Assembly (NCBI GenBank): GCA_018658605.1
Contig: JABHUV010000347.1
Span: forward strand, 1-5,982
Direction: 5' to 3'
From: Planctomycetaceae bacterium
GTDB lineage: Bacteria; Planctomycetota; Planctomycetia; Pirellulales; Pirellulaceae
DNA length: 5,982 nt
Each line of letters opens with the position of its first letter. Positions within the stretch are counted from its first letter, which is position 1. The notes below the pieces were generated by a model. That model was not told the origin of the DNA, did not search any database, and saw only the letters and a list, made by a program, of their open reading frames with translations. The position numbers and the translations under genes are program-made. Shown here piece by piece: positions 2 to 5,031 of this stretch.

Positions 2-592
2 GCCTACGATACTGGGGAAATGGCACCAACCCCGGGAGCCAAAGCACGGAATGCGTATGCAAATCAATTTTCACCAATTGCCTTAGGGCGTCAACTATTG
101 ATGGCGCGGCGATTGATTGAAGCTGGTTGTGGATTTGTCACCGTCACCTGTGGCGGTTGGGATATGCATGGGGGTGGCAAAGAATTCACAATGCGCGATG
201 GACTCAATACGTTGGCGCCAGCGGTCGATAAGGCGGTCTCCGCATTTATCGAGGACATCTCACAACGCGGTATGGCAGATGATGTATTGCTGGTCATGAC
301 TGGTGAGTTTGGCAGGACACCTCGAATCAATAAAAATGGTGGTCGAGACCATTGGGGCAATTTGTGTCCACTAGTATTTGTGGGTGGCGGTTTGAAGATG
401 GGGCAGGTGATTGGGCAATCGGATTCTCATGGTGGTGAACCAATTTCAGATCGAGTTTCTAGCCAGCACGTGTTAGCAACAATCATGAATACGTTGTTCG
501 ACACGGGCAAGTTACGGTTACAGCAAGGTATCCCGAGGGAAATTGAAGCAACCATGACTAGTGGTGATCCCATTTCCCAATTGTTTAGCTGA
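2..592 (+). CDS. DUF1501 family protein, C-terminal part (5' end outside window)
   Basis: The reading frame is open from base 2 and ends at TGA 590-592, giving 196 residues. The in-frame ATG at base 20 is internal, because family-like sequence (AYDTGEM) precedes it. Seen here are ARRLIEAGCGFVTV followed by GGWDMHGGG (about residues 51-59), then DDVLLVMTGEFGRTP (about 93-107) and GGRDHWG (113-119). EFGRTP followed by GRDHW is the hallmark of DUF1501 proteins, which resemble the alkaline-phosphatase/sulfatase fold; the conserved Asp and His may bind metal. Full-length members usually have over 400 residues and often start with a twin-arginine signal, so roughly the N-terminal half is missing. 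They commonly lie beside DUF1549/DUF1553 or DUF1800 genes in Planctomycetota, but that side is not visible. The enzymatic activity of the family is not established. The stop lies 12 bases before the next start, suggesting co-transcription. Confidence 0.93.
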   Translation, partial: AYDTGEMAPTPGAKARNAYANQFSPIALGRQLLMARRLIEAGCGFVTVTCGGWDMHGGGKEFTMRDGLNTLAPAVDKAVSAFIEDISQRGMADDVLLVMTGEFGRTPRINKNGGRDHWGNLCPLVFVGGGLKMGQVIGQSDSHGGEPISDRVSSQHVLATIMNTLFDTGKLRLQQGIPREIEATMTSGDPISQLFS

Positions 593-604: not shown

Positions 605-3157
605 GTGAGGTTTGGTATGTGGTTGCGTTTGTTTTATTCTGTTGCTGGTTGGCTGTTGGTGTTGTGTTTAAATGTCGGCTCGTTAAACGCTTATGGACAA
701 CAAGTGGATCTTAGCGAGCAAGCTTCCACGACACCAGCGATCACGCTGCGTGTTGGTGTTGTCGCCTATGAAGATTTTCATGTCGAGCACGCTAGGTTTC
801 AGCAATGGTTGCACCAAGTCTCCGCTTCTTTGAATCCTCCCATACGGTTTCAACTGACCACGGGATCCTATAGCGAAATTGCACATTGGATGAAACAGGG
901 AAGTGTCGATGCTGCTTTGCTTACTGGCGGAGGATTTGCGGCGTTAGGGGCACTGGATCAAGACACAGACGAGTTTGACTACATTGCGACATTGGATAGT
1001 GAGCCCGCGACAGGTCCTTGGGCTTCAGATAATCGTAAGTTGGCTGGGTTCCACGGTTTGTATCATTCCGTGTGTATTACGAATATTAATACAACGATTT
1101 CCTCTGCAACAGATTTGGTTGCTTTGGCTCAGCAGGGGAAATTGCGAGTGTTATTAGTGGATCGTCGCAGTGCATCTGGGAATATTATCCCCCGCCTCGC
1201 TTTGCAGGAAATCGGGGTTCAAATCCGAGAGGCCGACGTACGGTATTTAGGTTCGCATACCCAAGTCTTACAGGAACTTGCTCAGCAAAGCGGTGCGGCC
1301 AGCACCACAACGATTGGATTTGTCTGGGATGATGCCAGTATTAAAGTGCCACAGTTGTTGAGCAAATTGCGAAAAGTTGATTTTCTCGAATTAGCACAGC
1401 GACCTATTGCACATGATGCGTTGGTAATGCGACAGGACTATCCTCGCTTTGATGAGTTGTCCGCAATTATTCAACGCCAAATAGCTAGCAGTGTTAATTC
1501 ACCTTTTCAGCGACTTGCATCGGGCAAGCAACCCTACGTCACCTTAGGACACAGTGCCGAAGAACTTGGAATCGGGATATCGCAATTATTGCGCAAAGAC
1601 ATGCGTGGGGTGGGTAATATGCTTGTCCAAGCATATAGGCAACGAAGTGCTACCAATCCATTTCGTTTAGCTTTAGTACTTTCTGGTGGCGGAGCAAAAT
1701 GTGCTTATCAGGTCGGCGCTGTTTCTGAGATTGAGGACGCCCTTGCTGAGCTTAACGCTCGTAATCAGACGAATATTTCAATCGACTTAGTCGTCGGCAC
1801 GTCCGGCGGCGCAATAAACGCCGTTCCTGTTTCAATGAAAATGTCAGCCGATCAAGTAGGGCAGCAAAAATGGCAAGAAGTTTGGCTCGAATTAGATCAG
1901 CGTGAAATTGTCTTGCCGGCGCGCGGCGTGCGCATCAATATTGGTATTTGGATCGCACTGTTGCAAGTTGCTGGATTGATTGTATTGTTGCGATTACTTG
2001 TGCGCGATCCCGCTCGGCGTAGAGTTCGCTCAGCTCAGTGGATAAGTGCTTTGGGCGGCATTGAATTAGCATTGGTTTTGATTCCCTTCACACCTTGGTC
2101 GCTTCTCGGACATAATCACCTGTTGCACCACCTATGGTTGTGGTTATCCTTGGGGGCGCAGTATACCGCTATCACCCTGTTGCTGCTCGGTGGTATCAGC
2201 TTCCTATGGAATCTGCGGTTCAAACGACAGAATGAGGCGGTTCGGAAAGTGCGACGCTTAAGGACGGGGTTTTTGCTTACGGTGGGCATATTAGGGTTAC
2301 CGCTGTTGCAAATTGGAGTCATGTTTTTGGGGCATACGACTTTGTCATCAGGCGATGGTATGACCCAAGAAATATACAAGGGGTTTTCCGGGTTGGTTGG
2401 CGACGTATCCGGCCATGCGGTTACTGTGGAAAATTCGGCCCAGAAGTTAGAGCAATTAAGTAAAAATCTGATTAACCAAGGTTTAGTTCAACGGGATTTG
2501 GTGCTAACGGCGACTGCCATCTCAAAAAATAGAGATTCGTTGCCTTCAGATCTATATTTCTATTTCGCGGCGGACAATGACCACGAGCTGCCTCGGTTTG
2601 GGAGTCGCGGTGTCGACATGCAACGTCATCCCGAGCAGTTACTCAAAATTGTACTTGGTTCTAGTTCCATTTACCCAGTGTTTCCCGCACACGAGTTGAT
2701 TGACGTACCGAACCAAGGTGATCGCATTGAGTTAGTTGATGGAGGATTCGCTCATAATGCCCCGCTCGAAGCGGCGGTGTTATGGGGTGCGACACATGTT
2801 GTTTTGATTGACGCCGCGCCGGTTCAGGTGCGAGATGGCAAGAATTTAGCAGATGGTATGTTACGTGGTTTCGGGCATCTGTTCCAACAGTCGCAACTTT
2901 CTGACAAACGCAGCAAAGATGCGGTGATGGTATTTACTTTGGAGTCTCGTTTTCAGCCAAAATTGTGCGTGTTGGATTTTGCCAATGTGTTAGTTGAACA
3001 GGGAATCTATCATGGTCGGCAGGATGTGACCCAAGAACTGCGGCATCAGGATAACTTTCCGCCGAATCAATTACTGCCGCCGTTTATCGTCACCTATGGG
3101 CAACCACGGTTTGAAGAGATCGTTGCTCCGGTCAAGCCAGCTTTGTTAGCCCCGTGA
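605..3157 (+). CDS. PhnD-like binding domain fused to a patatin phospholipase with four internal membrane segments
   Basis: An 850-residue protein with a GTG start. Residues 1-31 are a signal peptide or anchor. Residues about 46-305 resemble PhnD-type periplasmic binding proteins of phosphonate ABC transporters: LRVGVVAYEDF at the start, VDAALLTGGGF (101-111) and the ligand-loop motif DRRSASGNIIP (186-196). Residues about 352-740 are a patatin-like lipase: oxyanion loop SGGGAKCAYQ (360-369), nucleophile GTSGG with Ser400, GSSSIYPVFP (685-694) and DGG with Asp712 as the second member of the Ser-Asp dyad. Between Ser and Asp lie four hydrophobic segments, roughly 445-466, 479-501, 510-535 and 554-577. 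The family hydrolyses acyl esters of phospholipids or other lipids. Placement in the cytoplasmic membrane with domains facing the periplasm is inferred from the signal peptide and from Arg/Lys-rich loops at 467-475 and 538-553. Cys366 stands where Gly is usual. The ligand and substrate are unknown. It follows the DUF1501 gene by 12 bases and no separate promoter was seen. Confidence 0.9.
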   Translation: MRFGMWLRLFYSVAGWLLVLCLNVGSLNAYGQQVDLSEQASTTPAITLRVGVVAYEDFHVEHARFQQWLHQVSASLNPPIRFQLTTGSYSEIAHWMKQGSVDAALLTGGGFAALGALDQDTDEFDYIATLDSEPATGPWASDNRKLAGFHGLYHSVCITNINTTISSATDLVALAQQGKLRVLLVDRRSASGNIIPRLALQEIGVQIREADVRYLGSHTQVLQELAQQSGAASTTTIGFVWDDASIKVPQLLSKLRKVDFLELAQRPIAHDALVMRQDYPRFDELSAIIQRQIASSVNSPFQRLASGKQPYVTLGHSAEELGIGISQLLRKDMRGVGNMLVQAYRQRSATNPFRLALVLSGGGAKCAYQVGAVSEIEDALAELNARNQTNISIDLVVGTSGGAINAVPVSMKMSADQVGQQKWQEVWLELDQREIVLPARGVRINIGIWIALLQVAGLIVLLRLLVRDPARRRVRSAQWISALGGIELALVLIPFTPWSLLGHNHLLHHLWLWLSLGAQYTAITLLLLGGISFLWNLRFKRQNEAVRKVRRLRTGFLLTVGILGLPLLQIGVMFLGHTTLSSGDGMTQEIYKGFSGLVGDVSGHAVTVENSAQKLEQLSKNLINQGLVQRDLVLTATAISKNRDSLPSDLYFYFAADNDHELPRFGSRGVDMQRHPEQLLKIVLGSSSIYPVFPAHELIDVPNQGDRIELVDGGFAHNAPLEAAVLWGATHVVLIDAAPVQVRDGKNLADGMLRGFGHLFQQSQLSDKRSKDAVMVFTLESRFQPKLCVLDFANVLVEQGIYHGRQDVTQELRHQDNFPPNQLLPPFIVTYGQPRFEEIVAPVKPALLAP

Positions 3158-3162
3158 TTGAT

Positions 3163-4353
3163 TTATTTACGTTCGATCATCATGACAGACGTATCGTCAT
3201 GCCGTCCTGCCCCAGCGGTGATTTCGGTAGACTTAAAGAACAAGAGATTCATCGCTTCGTCCAACGGCATGTTGATGGATTCCTTGAGTGTTTCAATGAT
3301 TCCAGCGACACCAAACTGATCGGCTAAGGCATCACCCTCCGGCGGAAATGCTTCATCAAGTCCGTCTGTATAAAGGAGCACGCGACTGTGGGGTGGAATG
3401 GGCGCCGATAGACATTCGTAACTCCAGCCTTGCATTACAGCTAAAGGTAATCCAATTTGGTCTTCATGGCCGAGGACGGAGATCTCATTGGTCTCCATGT
3501 TTTGCAATAGGGGAAGCGGGTGTCCCGCACAGGTCCATTGTAATTGATGTGTTGAAGTGTCGAGGATGGAATAGAGAAGTGTTATGAATCCGCCCTCGTC
3601 TTGAACAATGTCACTACGGCAGAGTCGTTCGTTCACGGCGCTGACGAATTCAGCCGTATCACCAAATCGATTTTCCCGAATCATGCGGATTAAGGTGTGC
3701 ATGGTCATGATAGACATGCAAGCCTTGACACCGTGCCCTGATGCGTCGCCCACGAGCATTACAAGTTGGTCGTCATTGAGGGCAAAGGAGTCGTAGTAAT
3801 CCCCGCCGGCCATGACGACCATGTTGCGACCATCGACACGTATTTCCGAAGGTTCGTAACGTCCTACCACACTGTAATCACGTAGTTTGGGAAGATCCGT
3901 GGGGACGACGGATTCCTGAAGCTTTCGTACCGAATTGACTTCTTCGCTTAATCGTTCTGCAACAACCTGATCTCTTAACGCTCGGACATTCCTTTCGGCT
4001 GATTCTAGAATGGAGACTAACAACATGATAAAGTTTTCGTCGTCGTCACGGATGAGGTGAGAGTGCAGGCCATTGGAGATGAACTCAATAAGCCTGGTAA
4101 ATTCGTGACTGCGAATGACGCCCACGATTGGGATCGAGGGTAGCGCTTCTTGGGTCGCCTTAAAGACAGACGCGGCTTCTTCCGGATTCGGGAAGTCTAG
4201 GGACAATAGAACGACGCTCCAATCGGCCTTATCTAAAGTGTCAACAAACACGGCAGCATGCCGACAAATCACAGCTTCGTGCGTACCGACATTGAGCATC
4301 AACTCAATGGTCTCAATTTCCGTTGAGGGTTCCCAACCAACTAGAATTTTCAT
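3163..4353 (-). CDS. RsbU/SpoIIE-type PP2C serine phosphatase with degenerate receiver domain
   Basis: A 396-residue cytoplasmic protein. Residues 1 to about 118 look like a response-regulator receiver (MKILVGWEPS, then VVLLSLDF with Asp53 at the usual end of strand 3). However, the acidic pair expected near residues 6-8 is G-W-E, and the conserved Lys near residue 102 is Arg. Residues about 115-150 form a charged helical, probably coiled-coil linker (ESAERNVRALRDQ). The SpoIIE/PP2C domain follows with its metal-binding signatures intact: GGDYYD (183-188, Asp185), GDASGHG (202-208, Asp203), AGH (276-278), YTDG (328-331, Asp330) and HDDTS (385-389). Family members dephosphorylate a Ser/Thr on anti-sigma-factor antagonists in partner-switching pathways; here the partner is unknown and not encoded nearby. 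The ATG at 4353 has only a weak purine-rich site (AGAG). The gene is convergent with the patatin gene, with 5 bases between stops. Confidence 0.93.
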   Translation of the reverse strand: MKILVGWEPSTEIETIELMLNVGTHEAVICRHAAVFVDTLDKADWSVVLLSLDFPNPEEAASVFKATQEALPSIPIVGVIRSHEFTRLIEFISNGLHSHLIRDDDENFIMLLVSILESAERNVRALRDQVVAERLSEEVNSVRKLQESVVPTDLPKLRDYSVVGRYEPSEIRVDGRNMVVMAGGDYYDSFALNDDQLVMLVGDASGHGVKACMSIMTMHTLIRMIRENRFGDTAEFVSAVNERLCRSDIVQDEGGFITLLYSILDTSTHQLQWTCAGHPLPLLQNMETNEISVLGHEDQIGLPLAVMQGWSYECLSAPIPPHSRVLLYTDGLDEAFPPEGDALADQFGVAGIIETLKESINMPLDEAMNLLFFKSTEITAGAGRHDDTSVMMIERK

Positions 4354-4587: not shown

Positions 4588-5031
4588 TTATTTCTTTTTA
4601 GCTTTAACTTTCACGAAAGCTTTCTTGAAAGTTTCGTCGTTGAAGACAGTTTTGACTTTGTCTTCAATTTTAGCAAGTTTGCCTTGGCATCCGCCACAGC
4701 ACACAGCAACCTTGACGCCTGCAACATCGCAGGTTTTAGCTGGGTCGACTGGTTTGCCTGCAAATGGGCAACTCGCTTGCTTGAACTGTCCAGTTTGGAC
4801 AAGTTGATGGTTTGCTTTAGCAGCAAATTTGGACGTGCTCTTGGCGAATGCACCAGGGCAATTGCCACAGCAGAAAAATACTTTTCCACCTTTGTAATCA
4901 GCGGTCTTGTCGGCAAGGACTTTTTTGCCGCTGAGTGGACACTTGACTCCGTCAAGCTTAGGGCCGGCATTTACATTGACGGCGACGACTGTGATTAACA
5001 CAGCACAAAACATTGCTAAAAACCGTTTCAT
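4588..5031 (-). CDS. Exported protein with two tandem Cys-rich (YHS/TRASH-like) repeats
   Basis: A 147-residue protein. Residues 1-22 are a signal peptide (MKRFLAMFCAVLITVVAVNV followed by NA), with likely cleavage after Ala22. The mature part has two ungapped repeats. The first is KCPLSGKKV (30-38) followed by VFFCCGNCPGAFAK (51-64). The second is SCPFAGKPV (87-95) followed by VAVCCGGCQGKLAK (108-121). Equivalent Cys residues (31/88, 54/111, 55/112, 58/115) are all 57 residues apart; Cys101 is extra in repeat two. The C terminus is Lys-rich (KVKAKKK). The CPxxGK and CCxxC pattern resembles YHS/TRASH-type metal-binding modules, so binding of copper or another soft metal in the periplasm is inferred, not shown; disulfide formation is an alternative. 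A strong ribosome site fixes the start. It is transcribed alone, between a promoter near 5202-5230 and a terminator at 4492-4525. Confidence 0.9.
   Translation of the reverse strand: MKRFLAMFCAVLITVVAVNVNAGPKLDGVKCPLSGKKVLADKTADYKGGKVFFCCGNCPGAFAKSTSKFAAKANHQLVQTGQFKQASCPFAGKPVDPAKTCDVAGVKVAVCCGGCQGKLAKIEDKVKTVFNDETFKKAFVKVKAKKK

What the first reader, a model, noticed from the sequence alone, without database searches (positions are those of the whole stretch)
605..3157. PhnD-like ligand-binding domain fused to a membrane-split patatin lipase
One protein joins an exported PhnD-type binding domain (about 46-305, with the DRRSASGNIIP ligand-loop motif) to a patatin domain with its Ser400/Asp712 dyad intact. 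Four membrane segments sit between the two catalytic residues. Patatin domains are normally compact and without internal membrane passes, and I recall no described PhnD-patatin fusion. This suggests a ligand-gated envelope lipase: binding of a small molecule outside could open or close lipid hydrolysis. The domain calls come from motifs in the sequence; the sensing role is inference.
Basis: partly seen in the sequence, partly recalled or inferred. Interest (0 to 1): 0.75.

Follow-up and report, generated by a model that had tools for sequence, protein, structure and literature searches.

The report
Sensor-fused membrane lipase of planctomycetes
One bacterial protein joins an outside-facing small-molecule catcher to a fat-cutting enzyme that is split around a membrane anchor; its known relatives keep both parts, so it is probably a lipase switched by a phosphate-like molecule, although that has not been tested.

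The parts
605..3157 (+). whole ORF, 850 aa from GTG 605; preferred start ATG 617 (846 aa)
   Evidence: close relatives start at residue 5
617..700 (+). N-terminal export signal (hydrophobic 9-27)
   Evidence: an N-terminal hydrophobic segment passes the cut-off in 90 of 118 aligned members, not in 28
740..1579 (+). PhnD-type solute-binding domain, residues 46-325
869..871 (+). Tyr89, equivalent of E. coli PhnD Tyr47
   Evidence: Y in 165 of 167, gap in 2
1160..1192 (+). DRRSASGNIIP phosph(on)ate-binding loop with Ser189 and Ser191
   Evidence: aligned to PhnD Ser127/Ser129; Ser189 167 of 167, Ser191 159 of 167
1256..1258 (+). His218, equivalent of PhnD His157
   Evidence: H in 166 of 167
1580..1663 (+). 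linker (helix 333-345) joining the binding domain to the first patatin strand (355-359)
   Evidence: secondary structure of the model
1664..1912 (+). patatin domain, N-terminal half (residues 354-436) with oxyanion loop GGGAKC 361-366 and nucleophile Ser400 (1802-1804)
   Evidence: PF01734; GTSGG 167 of 167, Cys366 167 of 167
1913..2401 (+). membrane insert, four helices (peaks 1946-2002, 2051-2107, 2150-2206, 2273-2329) with positively charged loops 1-2 and 3-4
   Evidence: four peaks in 115 of 118, three in 3, and loop charges fit a periplasmic N-terminus in 118 of 118; no Pfam match
2402..3049 (+). patatin domain, C-terminal half (residues 600-815) with catalytic Asp712 (DGG, 2738-2746)
   Evidence: Asp712 167 of 167
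2..592 (+). upstream neighbour, DUF1501 protein (cut by the window edge), ending 24 bases before ATG 617
   Evidence: PF07394 E 3.3e-45; DUF1501 also in L002 and, by clustering, L001
3163..4353 (-). convergent downstream neighbour, SpoIIE-type (PP2C) phosphatase; not thought part of the system
   Evidence: PF07228 E 9.3e-32; in 9 of 17 distinct loci

Best explanation
It is an inner-membrane, periplasm-facing patatin-type acyl hydrolase controlled by its own solute-binding domain. The export signal places the PhnD-type domain in the periplasm. Four membrane helices inserted after the nucleophile helix pin the patatin domain to the outer face of the inner membrane, so that Ser400 and Asp712 act on lipids of that leaflet. 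The PhnD domain closes like a flytrap on a small anion carrying a phosphate or phosphonate group. Through the short linker into the first patatin strand and the oxyanion loop, closure changes activity. Shown computationally: architecture, conservation, fold, topology by charge rule, intact dyad, and retention of the PhnD anion-binding residues. Inferred: lipase activity, phospholipid as substrate, the identity of the ligand, and the gating itself.
Against: No activity or binding data. No coordinates were available, so neither the Ser-Asp distance nor the contact between binding domain and active site was measured. A binding domain can hold substrate instead of gating, and one PhnD-like protein, BstB, binds sterols (PMC10942540, passages). 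The alignment to E. coli PhnD is modest overall (HHalign probability 71%), and 23 of 167 members lack one or more of the five residues. 28 of 118 members did not pass the N-terminal hydrophobic cut-off. Neighbours differ between clades, so context does not point to a ligand. Hydropathy and charge counts, not a trained topology predictor, were used.
Confidence: 0.5

Rival explanations
1. The PhnD domain is a substrate-holding module: it grips the phosphate head group of a phospholipid or lysophospholipid (or the lipid itself) and presents the acyl chain to the patatin site. There is no switch.
Against: The anion-holding residues are those of binders of small free solutes. Pocket size could not be examined.
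Confidence: 0.22
2. The protein is an acyl transferase or clean-up enzyme of lipoprotein acylation: it works with an Lnb-type N-acyltransferase, for example removing the lysophospholipid left when an acyl chain is taken.
For: In 7 of 17 distinct loci the gene directly follows a gene with the Lnb N-terminal periplasmic domain, overlapping it by 4 bases in 5 of those 7. DUF4105 was identified as Lnb, the lipoprotein N-acyltransferase of Bacteroides (PMC12994826, passages).
Against: The seven loci belong to one group of relatives; the window's close relatives have DUF1501 in that slot and in 7 further distinct loci no ORF clusters with either. It does not explain the phosphate-type pocket.
Confidence: 0.13
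3. A scavenging enzyme: it releases water-soluble glycerophosphates from lipid and the PhnD domain passes them to an ABC importer.
For: PhnD, PtxB and GpxB are importer-binding proteins and match in fold.
Against: No PhnC- or PhnK-like ATPase in 182 ORFs of 19 loci; the importer could lie elsewhere in the genome. The binding domain is covalently held to a membrane enzyme.
Confidence: 0.08
4. Assembly or fusion artefact.
For: One listed hit, P0012, lacks the PhnD part.
Against: P0012 matches the family only from residue 373, inside the patatin domain, after an unmatched start on a 2,630-base contig, so it is itself the likely chimera. All other listed hits of three searches carry both domains.
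Confidence: 0.01

Closest known systems
PlpD-type and bacterial patatin-like phospholipases (PF01734)
   Different: Four membrane helices inserted between the two catalytic residues; Cys366 after the oxyanion loop in 167 of 167; periplasmic binding domain in front. That PlpD is a type V secreted protein is recalled.
CapV and CapE, cyclic-nucleotide-activated phospholipases
   Different: Bound ligands there are cyclic nucleotides (entry titles); cytoplasmic location recalled. This protein is far below the curated NCBIfam cut-offs (43.8 of 400 and 30 of 200 bits) and has a PhnD-type domain in front.
PhnD / PtxB / HtxB / GpxB solute-binding proteins (PF12974)
   Different: Those are free binding proteins of importers; this one is fused to a membrane enzyme, with no PhnC/PhnK-like gene in the fetched neighbourhoods.
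PhnD-type sensors: AioX/ArrX and TtrS-family kinases
   Same: PhnD-type domain used for sensing outside the cell; TtrS-type kinases carry PF12974 (PMC5408782, passages); AioX shares the Tyr-Tyr-Ser-Ser-His pocket set (PMC5908839, passages)
   Different: Their output is a histidine kinase; here the output domain would be a lipase.
NTE / PNPLA6-type lysophospholipases with cyclic-nucleotide-like domains (recalled)
   Same: A ligand-binding-type module and membrane anchor joined to a patatin domain (recalled)
   Different: Different binding domain, membrane anchor outside the patatin fold, cytoplasmic side; all recalled, not compared here.

Membership tests
Patatin-like phospholipase (PF01734) | Pfam profile above curated cut-off | tested here: met
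   66.6 bits against 27.7
Patatin-like phospholipase (PF01734) | Ser-Asp dyad in GxSxG and DG[GA] | tested here: met
   Ser400 and Asp712 in 167 of 167 aligned members; both motifs aligned to CapE
Patatin-like phospholipase (PF01734) | Single compact patatin fold | tested here: met
Patatin-like phospholipase (PF01734) | Acyl hydrolase activity | not testable with these tools
   needs enzyme assay
PhnD-type solute-binding domain (PF12974) | Pfam profile above curated cut-off | tested here: met
   56.9 bits against 27
PhnD-type solute-binding domain (PF12974) | Residues holding the phosphonate group in PhnD/AioX | tested here: met
   all five in the window protein; all five (Ser/Thr at 191) in 144 of 167
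PhnD-type importer component | Partner ABC importer genes | tested here: inconclusive
   none like PhnC/PhnK in 182 ORFs of 19 loci; only near neighbourhoods were examined. A pattern test also found none but it detects only 1 of 2 control ATPases
PhnD equivalog (TIGR03431) | Curated equivalog cut-off | tested here: not met
   32.1 bits against 261.1
CBASS / anti-phage phospholipase equivalogs | Curated equivalog cut-offs | tested here: not met
   30 bits against 200 and 43.8 against 400
CBASS / anti-phage phospholipase equivalogs | Cyclase gene next door | not tested
   the window's neighbours are DUF1501 and a SpoIIE phosphatase; loci were not scanned for cyclases

The most novel reading that the evidence does not exclude
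A receptor-lipase: a single membrane protein in which an outside-facing solute-binding domain directly switches hydrolysis of membrane lipid according to the level of a phosphate-, phosphonate- or phosphoethanolamine-like molecule, letting planctomycetes tie envelope lipid turnover to phosphorus supply without a kinase, regulator or transcription step.
Probability: 0.38. Interest if true: 0.8.

Novelty: new variant of a known kind. Interest (0 to 1): 0.62.

Why it matters
Lipases switched by small molecules are known (CapV, CapE) and PhnD-type sensors are known in front of kinases. A conserved protein joining a PhnD-type sensor to a lipase on the outer side of the inner membrane would be a direct route from an outside chemical to membrane remodelling. 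It also gives a testable case of a patatin whose fold is anchored by membrane helices inserted between its catalytic residues, in a phylum with unusual envelopes.

Tried and rejected
Assembly artefact: rejected by the number of fused copies. Separate-gene relatives: 38 weak-hit loci (28, 9, 1) were searched with separate profiles of the two domains; none had hits to both in separate ORFs, but flanks were only about 1.5 kb, one of the 38 (L009) is the cut end of a fused member and one (L065) had no hit. Anti-phage effector: sequence similarity to CapE and PADLOC effectors lies in the patatin part only. A function read from neighbours: Lnb in one group, DUF1501 in another, nothing shared elsewhere, so not used as the main argument. 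A metal-binding role for His505/508/509 in the TM2-TM3 loop: 508 and 509 are His in 154 of 154 of the main branch, but none of the three is His in the 9-member branch and only 509 in 2 of the 4-member branch, so at most a branch feature (alignment of this loop is loose). Membrane insert as a known domain: no Pfam match; it was not folded and searched alone, so a known fold is not excluded. Counterpart of PhnD Glu177: the register there is uncertain (Asp242, Asp243 or neither). ABC importer next door: a pattern test found none, but its control failed for 1 of 2 ATPases, so it was replaced by BLAST and phmmer with PhnC and PhnK.

Rows dropped before counts: of the 120 rows, P0002 (98% identical) and P0012 (likely chimera) were left out of the 167-member alignment (119, 44), and P0110 (998 aa) also out of the 118-member one. 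The 167 come from capped best-120 lists, so the most distant of the 456 and 248 hits were not examined.

How common the family is: 13 of 199 genomes in one family (14 with any match), 8 of 396 in one order (16 with any match), 1 of 9 in another order plus one fragment, and in a phylum sample of 392, two full-length members, one divergent fused member and one fragment at a contig end (69 with any match). In some searches only the two best candidates per genome were scored, so these are lower bounds; the other matches there were, as far as the listed ranges show, to one domain alone.

Full report
What is there. The ORF at 605-3157 is real and open over 850 codons. Close relatives start at the ATG at 617, so the protein is probably 846 aa. 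Pfam finds a PhnD-type binding domain (50-280, E 2.5e-15) and a patatin domain (E 4.3e-18, two stretches, best 357-435). A hydrophobic stretch at 9-27 fits an export signal, and four further strong stretches lie at 448-466, 483-501, 516-534 and 557-575, between Ser400 and Asp712.

Is it one conserved protein? A search of about 5.8 billion proteins gave 456 relatives; of the 120 listed, 119 carry both domains. The exception, P0012, matches the family only from residue 373 after an unmatched start and looks like a chimeric contig. Searches from two divergent members listed 4 of 4 and 120 of 120 with both domains; many of the 120 are the same proteins as. These searches exclude proteins much shorter than the query. 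Where the listed hits show an organism name it is a planctomycete. Trees made separately from the two domains of 38 members shared 19 of 35 splits; of the splits with support of 0.9 or more (16 and 17) 11 were shared and none conflicted. Identity matrices of the two domains correlate at 0.91, reached by 0 of 2000 permutations. The fusion is therefore old and most likely inherited as one unit.

Catalytic and binding residues. In an alignment of 167 members, Ser400 (GTSGG), Asp712 and Cys366 are identical in 167 of 167. Cys366, following the oxyanion loop, is a signature of the family; its role is unknown. A profile alignment to E. coli PhnD (HHalign probability 71%, 252 columns) places Tyr47, Tyr93, Ser127, Ser129 and His157 on Tyr89, Tyr153, Ser189, Ser191 and His218. 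These are the residues that AioX and PhnD share on one side of the pocket (PMC5908839, passages read). Singly they are kept in 165 (2 gaps), 150, 167, 159 and 166 of 167; all five, with Ser or Thr at 191, in 144 of 167. An acid at 242 or 243 together with one at 271, the position of PhnD Asp205, occurs in 128 of 167; in PhnD, Glu177 and Asp205 hold the amine of 2-aminoethylphosphonate (PMC12718374 and PMC5908839, passages). That suggests, weakly because the register near Glu177 is uncertain, an amino-phosphonate or phosphoethanolamine-like ligand.

Topology. In 118 aligned members, four hydrophobic peaks were counted between the dyad residues in 115 and three in 3; over 167 members the counts were four in 160, three in 5 and five in 2. 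The mean net charges of loops 1-2, 2-3 and 3-4 are +2.1, -0.2 and +4.7, and in 118 of 118 the average of loops 1-2 and 3-4 is more positive than loop 2-3. By the positive-inside rule the chain starts outside, so both domains face the periplasm. An N-terminal hydrophobic segment passes the cut-off in 90 of 118 and fails it in 28; some of these starts may be mis-called, which I did not check.

Surroundings. Nineteen loci were examined, window included; two pairs are the same contig (and contig lengths), leaving 17 distinct. The gene follows an Lnb-domain gene in 7 (Pfam in all 7), overlapping it by 4 bases in 5, and a DUF1501 gene in 3, the window and its closest relatives. In L002, the only one of these three that reaches far enough, a MoxR-type ATPase gene and an aminotransferase gene lie beyond; ORFs clustering with these two lie beyond the Lnb gene in 6 of the 7 Lnb loci, L074 being cut short. 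So DUF1501 occupies the Lnb slot. In the other 7 loci no ORF clusters with either. No ORF similar to PhnC or PhnK was found in 182 ORFs.

How it most likely works. The best reading is a periplasm-facing membrane lipase governed by its own solute-binding domain, as in the best explanation. The closest precedents are PhnD-type sensors (AioX; TtrS-type kinases with PF12974, PMC5408782, passages) and patatins activated by small ligands. Gating is inferred from the anatomy; substrate holding is the main rival, helped by BstB, a PhnD-like protein that binds sterols (PMC10942540, passages).

Novelty. Searches of the held open-access library for patatin with PhnD gave one review on food proteomics (listing only); searches for patatin with planctomycetes or phosphonate-binding (11 listed), for two of patatin, substrate-binding protein and PhnD (15 of 75 listed, none of the 15 holding patatin), for patatin with transmembrane, periplasmic and substrate-binding domain (none) and for fused ligand-binding patatins (two unrelated) showed no description. 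Most subscription journals are not in that library. Sequence databases already annotate the family mechanically, by one domain or by both: several JGI names list phospholipase RssA and the phosphate/phosphonate binding component together. What seems new is the description of the architecture, its conservation and its topology, not the existence of the records.

Noticed in passing
L003 4883-5941 and its equivalents in L004, L005/L072, L070, L071, L073, L074: A gene with the Lnb N-terminal periplasmic domain (lipoprotein N-acyltransferase type) directly precedes the fused lipase, overlapping by 4 bases in 5 of 7; in the window's close relatives a DUF1501 gene sits in that slot.
   Followed up: partly
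window 1685-1702: Cys366 right after the oxyanion loop (GGGAKC) is identical in 167 of 167 members, even in a branch at 22-28% identity; its role is unknown.
   Followed up: partly
window 2117-2131: His505/His508/His509 in the outward loop between the second and third membrane helices are nearly invariant in the main branch but mostly missing from the two divergent branches.
   Followed up: partly
window 4588-5031 (-): A small protein with an N-terminal hydrophobic stretch (by eye), paired CC motifs and only weak TRASH/YHS-type matches below cut-off; relatives in 6 of the 19 fetched loci, window included. Possibly metal-binding.
   Followed up: no
window 3163-4353 (-): A SpoIIE-type phosphatase, convergent with the lipase gene and present in 11 of 19 fetched loci (9 of 17 distinct); its N-terminal part looks like a response-regulator receiver by eye only.
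   Followed up: no
L010 1321-1779: A 153-aa fragment of the binding domain (76.8 bits) running to the end of the fetched stretch in another genome of the phylum, probably a cut member of the family.
   Followed up: no
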